64,000 bases of DNA, from assembly GCF_022271405.1 (NCBI RefSeq), contig NZ_JAJNAL010000015.1, positions 1-64,000 of the forward strand, in the 5' to 3' direction. Below are positions 584 through 8,998 of the stretch, in pieces; within the stretch, counting starts at the first letter, position 1; each line of letters starts with the position of its first letter. The stretch comes from Rhodopseudomonas infernalis (GTDB lineage Bacteria > Pseudomonadota > Alphaproteobacteria > Rhizobiales > Xanthobacteraceae). The translations under genes and the position numbers were made by a program. The notes beneath the pieces were generated by a model. The model saw only the letters and a list, made by a program, of their open reading frames with translations, had not been told where the DNA came from and did not search any database.

Positions 584-2200
584 ATGTCAGACAAGCCGAA
601 ATCCCTGCTGAGCCGCCTCGCTGCGCGCGGGCCGGCGTTGGCGGTCTCTGCGGTGCTGCTGCTCAGCGTGGCCGCGCCGGCGTCGGCGCAGTTCTTCGGC
701 TTCGGCGGCCCGCCGCAGCCGCCGCCCCGGCAGCAGCGCGGCGGCGGCTATTACAACGGCGGCGGCGGCGGATTCTTCGGCAGCGACGTGTTCGCGCCGT
801 TCCAGCATCAGGCGCCGCGCCGCGCGCCGGTGCGCGAGGACTATTCGCGCGCGCCCGCGCCGGAGAAGCGTGAAGCGGCCGCCGAGCGCAACGTCGTGGT
901 GCTCGGCGACGCCATGGCCGACTGGCTCGCTTACGGCCTCGAGCAGGCCTACACCGAGCAGCCCGAGATGGGCGTGATCCGCAAGCACAAGACCGTCTCG
1001 GGCCTGCTGCGCTATCAGCCCAAGGGCGAGCCGTCCGACTGGATCGCCGCCGCCAAAGAGATCCTGGCCGGCGAGAACCCCGACGCCATCGTGATGATGC
1101 TGGGCCTCAGCGACCGCGCGCCGATCACCGAGCCGGCCGCCGAAAAGAAGAAGGACGCCGCCGACACCAAGTCTGACGCGACCAAGGCGGATGCCGCGAA
1201 GCCCGACGACAAGACCGCCGACAGCGACGCGGCCGATGACGACGAGGACGACGACGGCACGCCGCAGATCATGGCGCCGGAGAAGTCCAAGCGCGGCAGC
1301 GGCGTCGCCCAGTTCCGCGATGCGCGCTGGGTCGAGCTCTACAACAAGAAGCTCGACGACATGATCGCGGTGCTGAAGGCCAAAGGCGTGCCGGTGCTGT
1401 GGGTCGGCCTGCCGGCGGTGCGCGGCACCAAATCGACCTCCGACGCGCAGTTTCTCAACGCGCTGTATCGCGACGCCGCCACCAAAGCGGGGATTACTTA
1501 CGTCGATGTCTGGGACGGCTTCGTCGACGAGGGCGGCCGCTATATGCTGCAGGGCCCGGACTTCGAAGGCCAGACCCGCCGGCTACGCTCCTATGACGGC
1601 GTGTATTTCACCAAGGCCGGCGCCCGCAAGCTGGCGCACTATGTCGAGCGCGAGATCGCCCGGCTGCTCGCCGGTCGCTCCGGCCCGATCGAACTGCCGA
1701 CCGAACCGGCGACGCCGGACACCACGCCCGCCAAGCCCGAAGGCCCGGCGCCGCGGCCGATCGCCGGCCCGATCGTGCCGTTGGTCGCCTCGGCGGTGTC
1801 GACCGATCGGCTGCTCGGCGGGCCTGGCCCGTCGCCCGTGGCGGTCGACGCGCTGGTGTCGCGGACGCTGATGAAGGGCGAACCGCTCGCCGCGCCGGCC
1901 GGCCGCGCCGACGACTATGCCTGGCCGCGGCGCGAGATCGTGGTCGAGAAGGCGCAGGAGCCGCCGCCGCCGAAGGACCCGCCGAAGAGCGCCGTGCCGA
2001 TGGCCAGCAACACGCCGAACGGCGCCGCGCCGACGCGTCAGGGTGGATCACAGCCGCAGCAACGCCGCGTCGTCCGCGCCGCACCGCCTCCGCCGCCAGC
2101 CGCCTCCGGCTTCTTCGGCTTCGCCCCGGCTCAGCAGCAGCCCCAGGTGCGCCGCGCCTCGCCGCCGACCGCATCGGGATTCTTCTCGATCTTCCGGTGA
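584..2200 (+). CDS. Exported SGNH/GDSL-fold protein, DUF459 family
   Basis: This 538-residue protein has an N-terminal signal peptide ending near VAAPASAQ (about residue 36), so it is likely periplasmic. An SGNH hydrolase-like core follows, interrupted by an acidic, lysine/aspartate-rich insertion around residues 190-230. The C-terminal 170 residues are rich in proline and alanine and end with two similar SGFF motifs. The block I motif reads VVLGDAMADWL, so the usual nucleophile serine of GDS is alanine. The block V motif reads DGVYFTKAG, with tyrosine where catalytic histidine normally sits. It may therefore be a non-catalytic SGNH protein. The ATG at 584 was chosen because the signal peptide starts there; a TTG at 563 is the alternative. 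Confidence 0.75.
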   Translation: MSDKPKSLLSRLAARGPALAVSAVLLLSVAAPASAQFFGFGGPPQPPPRQQRGGGYYNGGGGGFFGSDVFAPFQHQAPRRAPVREDYSRAPAPEKREAAAERNVVVLGDAMADWLAYGLEQAYTEQPEMGVIRKHKTVSGLLRYQPKGEPSDWIAAAKEILAGENPDAIVMMLGLSDRAPITEPAAEKKKDAADTKSDATKADAAKPDDKTADSDAADDDEDDDGTPQIMAPEKSKRGSGVAQFRDARWVELYNKKLDDMIAVLKAKGVPVLWVGLPAVRGTKSTSDAQFLNALYRDAATKAGITYVDVWDGFVDEGGRYMLQGPDFEGQTRRLRSYDGVYFTKAGARKLAHYVEREIARLLAGRSGPIELPTEPATPDTTPAKPEGPAPRPIAGPIVPLVASAVSTDRLLGGPGPSPVAVDALVSRTLMKGEPLAAPAGRADDYAWPRREIVVEKAQEPPPPKDPPKSAVPMASNTPNGAAPTRQGGSQPQQRRVVRAAPPPPPAASGFFGFAPAQQQPQVRRASPPTASGFFSIFR

Positions 2201-2281
2201 GACTCGTTTGACAACTCGCCGCACGCGGCGCGGTTAGTGCTGATTGCTGCCTTTCCGACGGATGGCCTATCGGCGAGTCAG

Positions 2282-2392
2282 TCCGGGGCGCGCAGCGAAG
2301 CTGCGTGAACCCGGAATCTCAGCTGGGCAGAACAATTCGAGGTTCCGGGTTCGCGTAGCTGCGCTACGCGCCCCGGAACGACGGTGGGTGGG
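2282..2392. repeat. Interspersed palindromic repeat, family A, copy 1
   Basis: Two hairpin arms built on GCGTAGCTGCGCTACGC-like and GCAGCGAAGCTGC-like palindromes are joined by a short spacer, with CCCGGAA and TTCCGGG blocks inside. The same arrangement recurs at 4142-4252 and 4361-4473. It fills the gap between the convergent SGNH and SDR genes, so it may also help end transcription. Confidence 0.75.
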
Positions 2393-2409
2393 AAGAGAGG
2401 CTTTGCGCC

Positions 2410-3144
2410 TTACAAAATCAACCCGCCGTCGACCGCCAGCGTCTGGCCGAGCACGTAGCTCGACAGCGGCGAGGCGAGGAACAGGGCGACGCCGGCCATG
2501 TCCTCGGGCGTGCCGAGGCGCTTCATCGGGATGCCCTCGATGGCGCCGGCGAGGCGCTTGGGGTTGTCGGTGGTGACCTTGGTCATCTTGGTATCGACCA
2601 GTCCGGGCGCGATGCCGTTGACGCGGATGCCGTCTTCGGCCCAGGCCTGCGCCAGCGTGCGGGTCAGGCCGAAGGCGCCGGTCTTCGACGCGTTGTAGGC
2701 CGGGTTGCCCTTGGTGGCGTGGAATGCCGCGGTCGACGACACGATGATCAGCTTGCCGGACGCCGCCTTCAGCAGCGGATGAAATTTCGTCGCGCAGGCC
2801 ATCAGGCTCATCAGGTTGACTTCCATCACGTGGCGGAAGCCGTCCATCTCGAACTCACCGCGGCGATAGATCACCGCGCCCTGTGCCAGGATCAGCACGT
2901 CGAGCCGATCGATCGGCGGCGCGAATGCCTCGACGGATTGCGGCTTACCGACGTCGAGCTGCACGTAAGTGAGGCCTTCGAAATGGCTGCCGTCCGCGGC
3001 TGCGTAGTCGGTCTGCGACGCGCGCGTGCCGGTTACGCACACCTTGGCGCCGTGGGCGGCAAACGCCTGCGCGATACCGTTGCCGATGCCGCTCGAGCCG
3101 CCGACGATCAGAACCTGCTTGCCACTGAAATCGAGTTCGTTCAC
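2410..3144 (-). CDS. SDR family oxidoreductase
   Basis: A 244-residue classical short-chain dehydrogenase. The NAD(P)-binding glycine motif GGSSGIG is at about residues 15-21, the active-site YNASK motif at about 150, and the family-typical VDGGLIL at the C-terminus. It should catalyse NAD(P)H-dependent oxidoreduction of an alcohol or ketone; the substrate cannot be read from sequence. It is divergent from another SDR at 3290, suggesting one catabolic or detoxifying locus. The length is normal for the family. Confidence 0.85.
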   Translation of the reverse strand: MNELDFSGKQVLIVGGSSGIGNGIAQAFAAHGAKVCVTGTRASQTDYAAADGSHFEGLTYVQLDVGKPQSVEAFAPPIDRLDVLILAQGAVIYRRGEFEMDGFRHVMEVNLMSLMACATKFHPLLKAASGKLIIVSSTAAFHATKGNPAYNASKTGAFGLTRTLAQAWAEDGIRVNGIAPGLVDTKMTKVTTDNPKRLAGAIEGIPMKRLGTPEDMAGVALFLASPLSSYVLGQTLAVDGGLIL

Positions 3145-3289
3145 CGCGAACCTCCCGTGTTGTCGTTGCCGCGGCTCTTGCGACGGCCGCGTTTGACCTG
3201 TGTGTCGATCAGTGCGAGCCTTGTCAATCGGAGCCGGGCCGCACTACGCGGCCACTAATTCCGCAACAAGAAACAACCGGAGGAAACCG

Positions 3290-4066
3290 ATGTCGTACAA
3301 ACCCCTCAGCCGTTCCGTCAAAGGCCTGCGCGTGCTCGTCACCGGCGCTGCGAGCGGCATGGGCCGCGCCACCGCGCATGTGTTCGCCGACGAAGGCGCG
3401 CGCGTCGCCGTCACCGACGTGACACTCGCCGGCGCGCAGCCGGTCGCCGACGCCATCAAGGCGCGCGGCGGCGATGCCACTGCATTTGCGCTCGACGTCG
3501 GCGATGCACAGGCGATCAAGAGCGGCGTCGAACAGATCGCGCAGACGCTCGGCGGCCTCGACATCGTCATCAACAATGCCGGCATCTCGGCGGCGCTCCC
3601 GATCGACGATGCCAATTACGAGGCGGTGTGGGAGCGCGCGCTCAACATCCTGCTCACCGCGCATCCGCGCGTGATCCGCGCCGCGCTGCCTTATCTGCGC
3701 AAATCGCAGAGCCCGCGCATCGTCAACATCGCCTCGACCGAAGCGCTCGGCGCCACGTCGCCGCACAGCCCGTATTCGGCGGCGAAAGCCGGCGTCACGG
3801 GTCTCACGCGCTCGCTCGCGGTCGAGCTCGGCCCCGAGGGCATCACCGTCAACTGCATCTGCCCCGGCCCGATCACCACCGGCATGACCGACCGCATCAG
3901 CGCCGAGCACAAGCAAAAATACGCCCGCCGCCGCACCGCCCTGCACCGCTACGGCGACCCGGAAGAAGTCGCCCACATGACGCTCAGCCTGTGCCTGCCG
4001 GCCGCCTCGTTCCTCACCGGCGCGGTGATTCCGGTCGACGGCGGATTGATGGCAAGGAATGCGTGA
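3290..4066 (+). CDS. SDR family oxidoreductase (FabG-like)
   Basis: A 258-residue classical SDR. TGAASGMG forms the cofactor-binding glycine motif near residues 18-25, NNAG is the structural motif, and YSAAK holds the catalytic tyrosine and lysine. PVDGGLMA is near the C-terminus. The ATG at 3290 was chosen over upstream starts because the core begins immediately after it and an AGGA-type ribosome site lies just upstream. It is divergent from the SDR at 2410-3144 with a gap of about 145 bases that should hold both promoters. The substrate is unknown. Confidence 0.85.
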   Translation: MSYKPLSRSVKGLRVLVTGAASGMGRATAHVFADEGARVAVTDVTLAGAQPVADAIKARGGDATAFALDVGDAQAIKSGVEQIAQTLGGLDIVINNAGISAALPIDDANYEAVWERALNILLTAHPRVIRAALPYLRKSQSPRIVNIASTEALGATSPHSPYSAAKAGVTGLTRSLAVELGPEGITVNCICPGPITTGMTDRISAEHKQKYARRRTALHRYGDPEEVAHMTLSLCLPAASFLTGAVIPVDGGLMARNA

Positions 4067-4141
4067 GGTGATACGCGAGGGCAGACTACTCCGTTGCTAA
4101 CAAGCGACGCGTAACTCGGCCCCAGCGCTCCGCCCCTCGCA

Positions 4142-4252
4142 CCGTCGTTCCGGGGCGCATAGCACAGCTATGCGAACCCGGAACCTCGAGATGTTCTGCC
4201 CGCCTGAGATTCCGGGTTCACGCAGCTCTGCTGCGTGCCCCGGAATGACTCG
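4142..4252. repeat. Interspersed palindromic repeat, family A, copy 2
   Basis: It starts with CGTTCCGGGGCGC and ends with CCCCGGAATGAC. The two hairpin arms (GCATAGCACAGCTATGC and GCAGCTCTGCTGC) are joined by a spacer containing TTCTGCC. The organisation matches 4361-4473. Confidence 0.8.
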
Positions 4253-4269
4253 TGGATAGTTTGTAGTTC

Positions 4270-4301
4270 GTAGGATGGGTTGAGCAGCGCGAAACCCATC
4301 G
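4270..4301. repeat. Family F repeat arm; left copy of a 32-bp direct repeat
   Basis: The element begins GTAGGATGGGTTGAGC and ends CGAAACCCATCG. By eye it matches 7287-7318 at 31 of 32 positions in the same orientation. The two copies flank the AT-rich ATPase/TOPRIM island. It could be a recombination scar or simply another member of a dispersed repeat family. Confidence 0.75.
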
Positions 4302-4360
4302 CGGCGCGGCGGGGCGGGCCGGTTACAGCAGCAGAGCCGTTCTGCCGCGTTTCCCCACCC

Positions 4361-4473
4361 ACCGTCGTTCCGGGGCGCGTAGCGCAGCTACGCGAACCCG
4401 GAACCCCGAAGCGTTCTGCCTGCCTGAGATTCCGGTTCACGCAGCTTCGCTGCGTGCCCCGGAATGACTCGCG
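4361..4473. repeat. Interspersed palindromic repeat, family A, copy 3
   Basis: Two arms, GCGTAGCGCAGCTACGC and GCAGCTTCGCTGC, are flanked by CGTTCCGGGGCG and CCCCGGAATGAC. It is nearly identical to copy 2, lying about 110 bases upstream on the same strand. Confidence 0.8.
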
Positions 4474-4983
4474 GAGAGTTTGGACCTGCCACGGCAAATT
4501 ACTCTCGCGGCTCGATCGAGCCCGAGCTGTGCGCCCGTCGCTGTCACAGCGAGGGGCGGGGGCGCGCCGTGCGGCGCGGATAATTGGCAGGTCTCGCGAG
4601 GGCATGCGATCCCTCGCGCAACGCCTCACGGCGCGTCCACCGCGGCGATTTGTGACCGAGGGACCGTTCTTCCGGGACACAGCGAGCTTGCGGGCTTTCC
4701 CCGGCCTCCACTGCACCCGCCCAGCCTCTGAAGCGGCGGACGCTCGTAGTAGCGGCGGACGGTGACCCTCGGCCTCCCGGGCTGCGTGAGTACGTACCAC
4801 GATACGACGGTAGCCCCTCCTCAAGGCACTGCAGAAGCCACATCGAGGCAGCAAACGAAAGTCTATGTTATTATAGTTAGAGGGAATATGAGGAGATCAA
4901 AACCCACGATCCCAAACTTGCAAGTGACCCAGCAGATGATCTATCTGAAGCCTCGTGCGTGCTCAAATTTAAGGACGTAAGCA

Positions 4984-6303
4984 TTGTTAAGGGCAGTTAG
5001 TGTCTCCGGCTTCAAATCGCTGGACGATTTCAAGCTTGAATTCCACAAAGGGCTTAATGTCCTTATCGGACCGAATGGCTCGGGAAAGACCAACATCATC
5101 AACTTCCTCGAGTTTCTGGCGCACCTTGCTCGGAACTCATTGCTGGACGCCGTCAGCAGAAGCGGCGGCGCTGGTAAGATCTTCAGAAGGGACCACGTGG
5201 GAGCGCTCCGTCGGAGAATTTCTTTTAAGATCATCGGCGACGGCGAACACCAAGATTATCGAAGCGATCAAAAGGTATATGTTTGGTACGAGTACGACGC
5301 TGAGATCTCCCTATCCAAAAGCAATAGTGCCCTGAGCTACACCATGCAGCGACTGAGGATGGCTTTTGGAGAGCAGAGGGACCCCAACGGGATTTGGCCT
5401 ATTGATGTTGAAGTTCTGCGAGAGGACGAAGATGATTTCAAACTAAATTTTGTTTCTGCAAACACCGATCACTTCAGAGACCACTTTTCGAGAAAGAAGG
5501 AAACCTTTACGGAGCTACAGGCAAGCATCGAAGAAACCATAAAGGAAGATGCGCCAACATCATGCTTATATCAGATTTTGTCGCGATTTCTGCTCGGCTC
5601 CTCGCAGATTTCGCGAGACCTTGTAGGCGCAAAGTCCCTCAACATATCCCCTTCGGCAGTCCGGAAGCCCGAAGACATCGCCAGTGAACCTGAAATAAGC
5701 GAAGACGGCAGCGGCCTAGCGGCCGTGCTATTCGCATTGAGCGCACGCCCTAGAAATTTTTGGGCATATGGCCCCTATCTAATTCAGACAGAAAGTTCGC
5801 CCGAAACGCTAGCTAAGTTGATTTCATACTCTCGAATAGTCAACGAATCGATCGAGGACATTACTGTCGAACCAGACACGATCGAGAACCAATTGCGGAT
5901 TTTTGTTAAGGTCTCTTACGAAGATGGGACACTCAAACTGCCCTTTAGCTTGGTTTCAGACGGGACAGCAAAGTGGTTTACGCTAGTCACAGCAATCTTG
6001 ACTAGCCACTCCATCTTCGCCATCGAAGAGCCCGAAAATTTCTTACACCCACTAATGCAGCGTGAAATCGTGAAGATTGTCAGAGAGACATTCAACGGCG
6101 ATCTTGACGACCGATTCGCGATTATGACGACGCACAGCGAGACGATCCTAAACAATATCGATCCTGACGAAATGATTTTGGTTCACATGGAGAATGGTCG
6201 CACGCTCGCCAAACGACCAACCAATGCAGACGACATCAGGGAAGAAATTAACGAAACCGGCTTTGGCGCCGGCTTCTTCTACCTGTCCGGAGCATTGGAA
6301 TAA
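4984..6303 (+). CDS. AAA/OLD-like ATPase, putative defence-system subunit
   Basis: A 439-residue SMC/ABC-type ATPase of the AAA_15/AAA_21 kind. Walker A GPNGSGKT is at residues 29-36, an ABC-signature-like DGTAKW precedes the Walker B region FAIEEPENFLHP (about 344-356), and the switch histidine motif MTTHSE is near residue 384. Unlike full OLD nucleases it has no C-terminal TOPRIM domain; a TOPRIM-like protein is encoded by the next gene, which overlaps it by one base (TAATG). The start is TTG, the first start codon after an in-frame stop at 4978, preceded by AAGGA. Base composition is far more AT-rich than the neighbours, a sign of transfer. The ATPase assignment is firm; defence is inferred from architecture (compare PARIS, AbiL and OLD pairs). 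Confidence 0.8.
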   Translation: MLRAVSVSGFKSLDDFKLEFHKGLNVLIGPNGSGKTNIINFLEFLAHLARNSLLDAVSRSGGAGKIFRRDHVGALRRRISFKIIGDGEHQDYRSDQKVYVWYEYDAEISLSKSNSALSYTMQRLRMAFGEQRDPNGIWPIDVEVLREDEDDFKLNFVSANTDHFRDHFSRKKETFTELQASIEETIKEDAPTSCLYQILSRFLLGSSQISRDLVGAKSLNISPSAVRKPEDIASEPEISEDGSGLAAVLFALSARPRNFWAYGPYLIQTESSPETLAKLISYSRIVNESIEDITVEPDTIENQLRIFVKVSYEDGTLKLPFSLVSDGTAKWFTLVTAILTSHSIFAIEEPENFLHPLMQREIVKIVRETFNGDLDDRFAIMTTHSETILNNIDPDEMILVHMENGRTLAKRPTNADDIREEINETGFGAGFFYLSGALE

Positions 6304-6866
6304 TGAGCGCGGCGTTTATAGTTGACGGACTCACGGAAAAGAAAATCATTCAGCGCCTCTGCCCCGGATCGCCGATCAGAACTACAGGAATGAACGGCAA
6401 AGACGTGGCTTTAAAAGCCATTGCGAAGGCTGCAAATTCCCTCATCAAGTTGTTTAGAGGGCGATACTACCCCATTGTAATAATAGTTGACCGAGAGGGA
6501 CGCGCCCAATCCGCGATTGATATAGAACGCGATTTAACACGACTTCTTGTCGAACTTGGAGCCGTTGAGAATGAACTAATTGTCTGCTCACCTGACCGGA
6601 TGATAGAAAACTGGATGCTGGCGGACACCAAGTACTTATTTGAGATTTATGATGTTCAGGCACCAACCCCCTGCGAAGGATTACATGGAAAACAAACACT
6701 GAAGCGACTACTCGCAACTAAGAACATTAGTTACCACGAGACAACAGTTGGCGTAGATATCCTCTCTAACTGCGACCCTCACGCGATTAGCGAGCGCGCT
6801 GAAAGCTTTCAGAGACTCATGGAAAGAGCGCAGTTCTTTTGTAGATGGCTTCGGGCCACCCCCTAG
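6303..6866 (+). CDS. TOPRIM/DUF4276-like protein, putative nuclease partner of the ATPase
   Basis: A 187-residue protein whose ATG overlaps the ATPase stop codon, implying translational coupling. Visible motifs are a beta strand plus acidic residue (FIVDGLTEKK, Glu12), a hydrophobic strand ending in acidic residues (IVIIVDREGR, Asp63 and Glu65), and IENWMLAD (Glu102 to Asp108). This pattern resembles DUF4276/RloB-type TOPRIM-like proteins, in which the acidic residues bind metal. It has no signal peptide or membrane segment and shares the AT-rich composition of its partner. A nuclease effector activated by the ATPase is the best inference. The exact family is not certain without a profile search. 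Confidence 0.65.
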   Translation: MSAAFIVDGLTEKKIIQRLCPGSPIRTTGMNGKDVALKAIAKAANSLIKLFRGRYYPIVIIVDREGRAQSAIDIERDLTRLLVELGAVENELIVCSPDRMIENWMLADTKYLFEIYDVQAPTPCEGLHGKQTLKRLLATKNISYHETTVGVDILSNCDPHAISERAESFQRLMERAQFFCRWLRATP

Positions 6867-7181
6867 CTATACACACGACCTGATATCGACGATTTATAGA
6901 CCGCCCTTCTGATTGATAGATCAACTATGCGACTCATGTAAGCGCTGGCGTGCGCGACGAGCGGCAACTTAGAATGCTAAATTCATCTACAATTCATTCC
7001 CTGGAAGCTCCGGCACCAGCCTTCAACCTCATCCGAGGCCTTACGACTGCGCGCCTTTTTGGTGCTGAGGGGGAGTTTCTCCATATCCAGTTGGCGCACG
7101 TAATCGCCATTGCCGGACATAAACTGACAATCCTTTTTCCTTCGGCATTGATAAGACTTACTGATGGCGCGCTTCGCGCGC

Positions 7182-7213
7182 GATGGATGCGCGGGTCGAG
7201 CCCGCGCATGACG
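7182..7213. repeat. Partial family B repeat (one arm)
   Basis: GATGGATGCGCGGGTCGAGC followed by CCGCGCATGACG matches the right-hand arm of the family B elements at 15015, 23714 and 36782, without the left arm. It marks the right boundary where composition returns to the genomic norm. Confidence 0.6.
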
Positions 7214-7286
7214 ACCGAGCAGGTGGTCAACGCAGTGAACTCGCTCGCCGGCGGATGCCTTGCGGCGGATCGCTTGTCACGGCGGC

Positions 7287-7367
7287 GTAGGATGGGTTGA
7301 GCAACGCGAAACCCATCGGCCTCGCGGTGAGGCGACGATGGGTATCGCTGCGCTCAACCCATCCTAC
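7287..7367. repeat. Family F repeat, inverted pair; right copy of the 32-bp direct repeat
   Basis: The left arm 7287-7318 is the near-perfect direct repeat of 4270-4301. The right arm 7336-7367 is its imperfect inverse (CGATGGGTATCGCTGCG then CTCAACCCATCCTAC), so the whole can form a long hairpin immediately downstream of gltD. Confidence 0.75.
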
Positions 7368-7392
7368 GGCGGCGGTGGTTGCCGCGTGCGGC

Positions 7393-8850
<1,458 letters not shown>

Positions 8851-8883
8851 CAGACTACCAACGCCCCTGAATTCTAATCCGGT

Positions 8884-8998
8884 CGTCATCCTGAGGTGCT
8901 CGCCCGAAGGGCGAGCCTCGAAGGATGAATGTTCTGCTGTGTCCTGTCGCTGTCACCCTTCGAGGCCCGCGCGTCGCGCGGGCGCCTCAGGGTGACGG
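8884..8998. repeat. Interspersed palindromic repeat, family D, copy 1
   Basis: It begins GTCATCCTGAGGTGC and ends with the inverse CTCAGGGTGACG, with CCTCGAAGGATG and CCTTCGAGGC blocks inside. A second copy is at 42821-42942. It lies between gltB and gltD, so it sits inside a presumed operon transcript and could form a stabilising or attenuating hairpin. Confidence 0.75.

What the first reader, a model, noticed from the sequence alone, without database searches (positions are those of the whole stretch)
4984..6866. AT-rich island with an overlapping ATPase / TOPRIM-like gene pair: candidate phage-defence system
Seen: an OLD-like AAA ATPase (Walker A 29-36, Walker B about 344-349, His384) without its own TOPRIM domain, overlapping by one base with a 187-residue gene carrying Glu12, Asp63/Glu65 and an ENWMLAD motif. 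Both are far more AT-rich than the flanks. Known: PARIS (AriA/AriB), AbiL and OLD-type systems pair such ATPases with TOPRIM-like nucleases. Inference: a two-gene abortive-infection or nuclease system, possibly a split variant not yet named.
Basis: partly seen in the sequence, partly recalled or inferred. Interest (0 to 1): 0.78.

Follow-up and report, generated by a model that had tools for sequence, protein, structure and literature searches.

The report
Split OLD-type ATPase–nuclease defence gene pair
A bacterium carries, in a chromosomal slot where some relatives keep other foreign-looking genes, a two-gene cassette (an ATPase that probably senses phage and a Toprim-like nuclease) that looks like a divergent, not yet tested relative of known anti-phage systems such as PARIS and HEC-01.

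Summary
Gene A (4984-6303) is an OLD-type ABC ATPase without a nuclease domain. Gene B (6303-6866) overlaps it by one base and belongs to Pfam DUF4276. Both are far more AT-rich than the flanks. Profile comparison puts B with Toprim nucleases: it scores against OLD-TOPRIM and DUF4435 (the AriB family) nearly as well as those two score against each other, above all 60 column shuffles in each comparison. But no solved structure matches B significantly. PADLOC's candidate HEC-01 fits A well (3e-41) and B only weakly and in part (3e-4). PARIS by its published rule is excluded (no DUF4435 match). Six such pairs were found in different hosts (B 24-42% identical to the window's); two lie in phage contigs near tail or head genes. 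B is absent from the 15 genus relatives, and the slot varies: 3 of 10 relatives with both flanks hold other cargo, one a SIR2-STAND protein. Best reading: a mobile two-gene abortive-infection module in which A senses phage and releases or activates nuclease B. Defence, trigger and target are inferred. Novelty is modest: a divergent member of a known kind (split OLD-ABC + Toprim).

The parts
4984..6303 (+). Gene A: OLD-type ABC ATPase, 439 aa, TTG start with AAGGA 8 bases upstream; no Toprim domain
   Evidence: AAA_21 6.7e-26, AAA_15 5e-20; HEC-01A 3e-41, AriA 1.7e-27, AbiLi 5e-26; AF2 model pLDDT 81, Foldseek best PtuA and Rad50/SMC heads, 195 matches at E<=0.001
6303..6866 (+). Gene B: DUF4276 Toprim-like protein, 187 aa; probable effector nuclease
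   Evidence: PF14103 6e-8 over cut-off; profile match to OLD-TOPRIM and DUF4435 against shuffle controls; AF2 model pLDDT 87, pTM 0.84
6324..6338 (+). B motif 1: D8-G9-x-x-E12 after the first strand
   Evidence: D/E at 8, G9 and E12 invariant in six pairs; D8-G9 aligned to the EG of VEG in OLD and DUF4435
6489..6503 (+). B motif 2: D63-R64-E65-x-R67 after the third strand
   Evidence: invariant in six pairs; D63-E65 aligned to DND/DAD of OLD and DUF4435
6594..6626 (+). B motif 3: D98-R99-x-x-E102-N-W104-x-x-x-D108
   Evidence: D98, R99, E102, W104 invariant in six pairs; E102 and W104 kept in 8 of 8 rows of a wider alignment
4823..7285 (.). Inserted AT-rich segment between conserved flanks (approximate limits)
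   Evidence: 5 of 15 fetched relatives align up to 4822 on the left; right-hand alignments begin between 7286 and 7392; GC step. No clean empty site was found
3200..4066 (+). Left flank: SDR oxidoreductase gene of the chromosome
   Evidence: adh_short_C2 9e-62; on one piece with gltD in 10 of 15 fetched relatives
7393..8889 (-). Right flank: gltD-like glutamate synthase small subunit
   Evidence: Pyr_redox_2 and Fer4_20 (the name gltD is recalled); DNA match in 16 of 16 genus genomes, own included

Best explanation
A mobile two-gene anti-phage module of the split OLD-ABC + Toprim kind. A forms ATP-bound dimers or higher rings through its ABC head and holds B inactive; a phage product or infection-caused change acts on A; B is released or activated and, using D/E8, E12, D63 and E65 to bind Mg2+, cleaves a cellular nucleic acid (tRNA or other RNA more likely than DNA), stopping growth before the phage matures. 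Shown here: the pair, its recurrence as a unit, ATPase motifs, Toprim-like profile, position in a variable slot, presence in phage contigs. Inferred: the complex, the sensing, the nuclease activity, the target, the defence.
For: A is OLD/ABC. B against OLD-TOPRIM: hhalign score 35.3 and 36.8 (six-row and eight-row B alignment); against DUF4435: 30.4 and 39.4; the two Toprim families against each other: 39.3; highest of 60 column shuffles in any B comparison: 16.8; three non-Toprim controls 11.4-14.3. Motifs sit after strands 1 and 3 of the B model, as recalled for Toprim. Foldseek in viral models: best hit RloB-like protein (probability 0.99), second a DNA topoisomerase (0.91), with E 0.014 and 0.026. 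8 of 8 loci examined that hold a close or profile-level B homologue have an A homologue directly upstream: window, L002, L089, L090, L091 found by B; L033, L051, L052 found by A. A and B identities correlate over the 15 comparisons among six pairs, r = 0.88 (not independent). B in 1 of 296 family genomes, in a slot where 3 of 10 relatives hold other cargo, one SIR2_2 + nSTAND. Two pairs lie in phage contigs near tail and head genes. A distant pair (E. coli, HEC-01) lies inside BREX between pglX and pglZ. PARIS, of the same two-part build, works as stated (PMC12409363, introduction read).
Against: No bench data. Foldseek found no solved structure at E<=0.001 for B; a topoisomerase I stands only at rank 25. 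Profile searches of PDB sequences gave only what I take as chance hits. B's hhalign probabilities are 29-76%, the controls are few and shallow (one to six rows), and motif 2 is D-R-E, not DxD. B is not in the DUF4435 or RloB lists, and HEC-01B fits only weakly and in part. Apart from A and B no ORF of 120 aa or more lies wholly in the inserted segment, so no recombinase was seen. The other cargo of the slot is not recognised as defence by PADLOC except for a local Dsr1 similarity (4e-10) of one protein and a 0.003 match of another.
Confidence: 0.6

Rival explanations
1. Same two-part build, but B nicks or degrades DNA (like OLD/GajA), so the pair destroys phage or host DNA rather than tRNA (a sub-case that overlaps the best explanation).
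For: B aligns to OLD-TOPRIM about as well as to DUF4435; the second-best viral fold match is a DNA topoisomerase; Toprims of OLD nucleases cut DNA (PMC10568477, passages).
Against: The stand-alone Toprim partner that has been worked out, AriB, cuts tRNA (PMC12409363, introduction). Nothing here separates RNA from DNA.
Confidence: 0.25
2. An OLD-type pair with a housekeeping or DNA-repair role, not defence.
For: A resembles Rad50/SMC heads in structure; an archaeal OLD-family ATPase, Cran1, acts in cell-cycle progression and apparently not in antiviral defence (PMC12796447, start of abstract in a listing).
Against: B absent from 295 of 296 family genomes; AT-rich segment in a variable slot; found in phage contigs.
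Confidence: 0.08
3. A selfish or toxin-antitoxin cassette: B toxin, A antitoxin, kept by addiction rather than by phage selection.
For: Two overlapping genes with fixed order and scattered distribution; PF13304 is itself labelled 'putative AbiEii toxin, Type IV TA system'.
Against: In the PARIS analogue deletion of either gene was non-toxic (PMC9122126, passages). A is an ATPase of sensor type.
Confidence: 0.1
4. A decaying, non-functional remnant.
For: No close homologue was found with which to measure selection (best relatives 41-42% in B); the AT-rich stretch after B (6867-7200) holds no long ORF.
Against: Both frames are intact, the motif residues are kept and the overlap is preserved.
Confidence: 0.05

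Closest known systems
HEC-01 (PADLOC candidate system: HEC-01A ATPase + HEC-01B DUF4276)
   Same: Two adjacent genes, OLD-ABC ATPase then DUF4276 protein; HEC-01A is A's best of 153 PADLOC models at E<=10 (3e-41).
   Different: B matches HEC-01B models at best at 3.3e-4 and over 43% of the model; A is 23% and B 20% identical to the E. coli HEC-01 pair.
PARIS (AriA/AriB)
   Same: Separate ABC ATPase and Toprim-like partner; AriA model 1.7e-27; B profile aligns to DUF4435, in one of two alignments on through the IEN motif.
   Different: No DUF4435 match at E<=10, so it fails the published PARIS rule (PMC9122126, passages).
MADS MAD3/MAD4
   Same: ATPase + small partner; mad4 model matches B at 5.7e-4 and L002 B at 2.6e-6. 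MADS is named among ABC ATPase + Toprim systems in PMC12409363 (introduction).
   Different: Far below NCBIfam cut-offs (75.1 of 420 and 18.5 of 160 bits); the neighbours are an SDR and gltD, not MADS genes.
AbiL (AbiLi/AbiLii)
   Same: AbiLi model matches A at 5e-26; best viral fold match of B is an RloB-like protein. That AbiLii is RloB-like is recalled.
   Different: No RloB in the Pfam list of B at E<=10.
OLD / Gabija GajA / retron OLD
   Same: Same ATPase type and Toprim-like module.
   Different: There both domains are in one chain (PMC10568477, passages); here they are two genes and no helicase or reverse-transcriptase-sized ORF lies in the segment.

Membership tests
PARIS | AAA_15 (32 bits) or AAA_21 (27 bits) ATPase | tested here: met
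   92.5 bits AAA_21, 72.9 bits AAA_15; thresholds from PMC9122126 (passages)
PARIS | partner with DUF4435 at 27 bits or more | tested here: not met
   only DUF4276 listed at E<=10
PARIS | triggered by Ocr-like protein; cleaves tRNA-Lys | not testable with these tools
   needs bench work
HEC-01 | ATPase matching HEC-01A | tested here: met
   3e-41, protein 3-416, model 4-348 of 371
HEC-01 | partner matching HEC-01B | tested here: inconclusive
   3.3e-4, model 109-195 of 202 only; PADLOC's own cut-offs were not at hand
HEC-01 | the two genes adjacent | tested here: met
   one-base overlap
DUF4276 (PF14103) | score over the curated cut-off | tested here: met
   33.6 against 30.2 bits; of the five other close B proteins only L051 passes (45.2); L002 29.3, L033 28.3, L052 26.8, L089 23.9 do not
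Toprim nucleases | profile similarity to known Toprim families beyond controls | tested here: met
   scores 30.4-39.4 against shuffle maximum 16.8 and three non-Toprim controls 11.4-14.3
Toprim nucleases | acidic motif 1 and a DxD motif 2 (recalled) | tested here: inconclusive
   D/E8 and E12 present; motif 2 is D-R-E in six pairs, D-L-E in the E. coli pair, D-R-D in L055/L059
Toprim nucleases | fold matches a solved Toprim structure | tested here: not met
   838 matches at E<=10, none at E<=0.001; a topoisomerase I only at rank 25
OLD class 1/2/3 | ATPase and Toprim in one chain | tested here: not met
   A ends after the ATPase; the Toprim-like part is gene B
MADS | MAD3 and MAD4 at NCBIfam cut-offs | tested here: not met
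   75.1 of 420 and 18.5 of 160 bits
AbiL | AbiLii (RloB-type, recalled) partner | tested here: inconclusive
   no RloB in the Pfam list at E<=10, but the best viral fold match is an RloB-like protein at E 0.014

The most novel reading that the evidence does not exclude
The five or six pairs form their own split OLD-ABC/Toprim defence system, neither PARIS nor HEC-01 proper, with a D-R-E-x-R / D-R-x-x-E-N-W nuclease signature and its own trigger and target. It moves between bacterial chromosomes and phage genomes, where it would act against rival phages.
Probability: 0.35. Interest if true: 0.5.

Novelty: new member of a known kind. Interest (0 to 1): 0.36.

Why it matters
If it works as proposed it adds a clade to the split OLD-ABC + Toprim systems, of which PARIS is the one whose trigger and target I found described in the papers consulted, and gives a compact 1.9-kb pair with which to ask what DUF4276 proteins do. 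The word DUF4276 occurs in none of the 5.39 million main texts searched (supplements not searched). The SDR/gltD slot would also be a place to look for further defence genes in this genus.

Tried and rejected
PARIS as the name: rejected, no DUF4435 match. Insertion at an RNA gene: the conserved 335-base element 4488-4822 left of the island has no Rfam match; the three hits in 3900-7500 are microRNA families far below gathering scores on the palindromic repeats. ARAGORN's tRNA-Ile at 3511-3604 lies inside the SDR gene and is taken as spurious. Clean empty site: not obtained; relatives differ by repeats between the flanks. Plasmid and phage records for B: no match at 1e-5. Viral contigs for B: none by the B protein or alignment A2; through the A alignment 34 loci came, of which two are full-length pairs of the close kind. 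Most of the A matches in 181 of 397 genomes of the order are short and were not examined for a partner. PDB sequences by B profile: chance hits only. PDB fold search for B: nothing significant. Papers: searches for HEC-01 with PADLOC, DUF4276, and MAD3/MAD4 gave nothing useful. First hhalign run read five OLD loci and one DUF4435 locus on the wrong strand, so its weak Toprim scores are void; its control scores stand. One search repeats it with strands put right, 11 OLD and 7 DUF4435 rows (five further OLD-TOPRIM loci, L110, L111, L112, L114 and L115, were left out). One search failed to find the locus files and was redone. The fold models used only window proteins and loci from the search for related loci.

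Full report
Observation. Composition is as claimed: GC 0.490 and 0.484 against 0.66-0.68 for four neighbouring genes, GC3 0.57 and 0.51 against 0.84-0.90; the lowest 1883-base stretch elsewhere, sampled every 50 bases, is 0.619.

What A is. Pfam gives AAA_21 (6.7e-26) and AAA_15 (5e-20). The best PADLOC models are HEC-01A (3e-41 and three more), then AriA, PDC-M07A and AbiLi. The AF2 model (mean pLDDT 81; stretches 160-169 and 257-270 poorly modelled) finds PtuA of Septu and retrons and Rad50/SMC heads, 195 matches at E<=0.001. AriA is not among the 50 rows shown. There is no Toprim domain after the ATPase.

What B is. Pfam DUF4276 at 6e-8 is the only family listed at E<=10. I tested the Toprim idea by profile-profile comparison with families fetched from other genomes: OLD-like TOPRIM (PF20469, 11 rows) and DUF4435 (PF14491, the AriB family, 7 rows, some below the family cut-off). 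The six-row B alignment scores 35.3 and 30.4, the eight-row one 36.8 and 39.4; the two Toprim families score 39.3 against each other; none of 60 column shuffles per comparison reaches the observed score (highest in the B comparisons 16.8). An SDR pair, a single gltD part and the A family score 13.3-13.6 against the six-row alignment and 11.4-14.3 against the eight-row one; these controls are few and shallow. The alignments put D8-G9 on the EG of the VEG motif and D63-R-E65 on the DxD motif; for DUF4435 one of the two runs on through the IEN motif. The AF2 model of B (pLDDT 87, pTM 0.84, six sequences) has motif 1 after strand 1 and motif 2 after strand 3, as recalled for Toprim. Against this, Foldseek finds no solved structure at E<=0.001, and in viral models only an RloB-like protein (E 0.014, probability 0.99, TM 0.51) and a topoisomerase (E 0.026, probability 0.91) stand out. 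For comparison, the authors of PARIS had an HHpred E-value of 0.02 for AriB against the Toprim of OLD nucleases (PMC9122126, passages).

Relatives. A pattern scan of 84,980 species genomes with B, which finds close relatives only, gave one: Luteimonas marina (39% in the best segment), with A directly upstream. A search with A over 397 genomes of the order matched 181, nearly all in short stretches; apart from the window's own, one match is full-length and strong, G364 (35%, 6.5e-72), with B beside it, downstream of a gene that reads as uvrB (the gene name is recalled). The B profile over 398 genomes of the phylum matched 4 including the window's own: G899 strongly, G761 and G967 weakly; all three have an A-type gene directly upstream. 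Two IMG/VR contigs hold full-length pairs: in one the next gene is a tail protein, with a tape-measure protein further on; in the other a major head protein lies about 1.7 kb downstream and a replication-type protein upstream. So 8 of 8 loci examined have both genes. In a FastTree of 13 A proteins the six close pairs are parted from the rest with support 0.999, and five of them (without L089) with 0.982; in the B tree of 9 the six are parted from the other three with 0.892 and the rest is poorly resolved. The E. coli HEC-01 pair is in 26 of 5426 genomes; 8 of the 26 rows were shown and each overlaps pglX of BREX.

Place. None of the other 15 genus genomes has B. I fetched the gltD region of all 15; 10 hold both flanks on one piece. 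The SDR-gltD distance varies from 326 to 5397 bases (3327 in the window); 7 of the 10 hold no ORF of 300 aa or more, 3 hold other cargo: an 824-aa SIR2_2 + nSTAND protein (GC 0.48), a 473-aa P-loop protein with a 200-aa partner (GC 0.47-0.50), and a 1140-aa protein with a local Dsr1 similarity (4e-10; GC 0.59). PADLOC gives nothing for the P-loop protein and only a 0.003 match for the SIR2 protein. SIR2 domains replacing TIR in an NLR-like anti-phage family are mentioned in PMC9122126 (passage). The window's copy is a fourth kind of cargo. Of the other 5 relatives, 2 end at a contig break and 3 lack the SDR (at 70% identity) in the roughly 12 kb fetched.

How it probably works. In PARIS an ABC ATPase hexamer holds three Toprim subunits inactive until a phage protein binds, then the released nuclease dimerises and cuts tRNA (PMC12409363, introduction read). 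A recent survey sees OLD-ABC + nuclease dyads as backup suicidal effectors of BREX (PMC12839542, passages). The window's pair has the same two parts, so sensor A and effector B is the economical reading. The target (RNA or DNA) and trigger are open.

What is known. Split OLD-ABC/Toprim pairs are a known kind (PARIS; AbiL and MADS are named with it in PMC12409363; HEC-01 from the models used here). This pair meets the HEC-01A half, is inconclusive for HEC-01B, and fails the PARIS and MADS rules. I file it as a divergent member of the kind, nearest to HEC-01, not as a PARIS. Several HEC candidates have shown antiviral activity (PMC12988326, passages); whether HEC-01 itself was tested I could not find.

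Noticed in passing
L044 (G215) 2028-4499, minus strand: The same SDR-gltD slot in a relative holds an 824-aa SIR2_2 + nSTAND_NTPase5 protein at GC 0.48, a likely defence gene, though PADLOC gives only a 0.003 match.
   Followed up: partly
L046 (G190) 2995-5023, plus strand: The slot in another relative holds a 473-aa P-loop ATPase and a 200-aa protein with no Pfam match, both AT-rich; no PADLOC match for the ATPase.
   Followed up: partly
L045 (G156) 2658-6077, minus strand: A 1140-aa protein with a local Dsr1 similarity (4e-10); a fragment of a similar gene remains in L044.
   Followed up: partly
window 4488-4822: 335-base conserved element left of the island, matched at 79-88% in 6 of 15 fetched relatives (one only in part); six partial copies elsewhere in the genome; no Rfam family.
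   Followed up: partly
window 4133-4482 and 7280-7375: Palindromic intergenic repeats on both sides of the island, including a 33-base unit shared by both sides at 97%.
   Followed up: no
window 4888-4980: A 30-codon ATG ORF that stops three bases before the start codon of A (read); leader peptide or chance.
   Followed up: no
L034 (E. coli plasmid) 3980-5664: HEC-01 pair embedded in BREX between pglX and pglZ; in 26 of 5426 E. coli genomes. PARIS genes are likewise co-located with a Salmonella BREX (PMC11341690, passages).
   Followed up: partly
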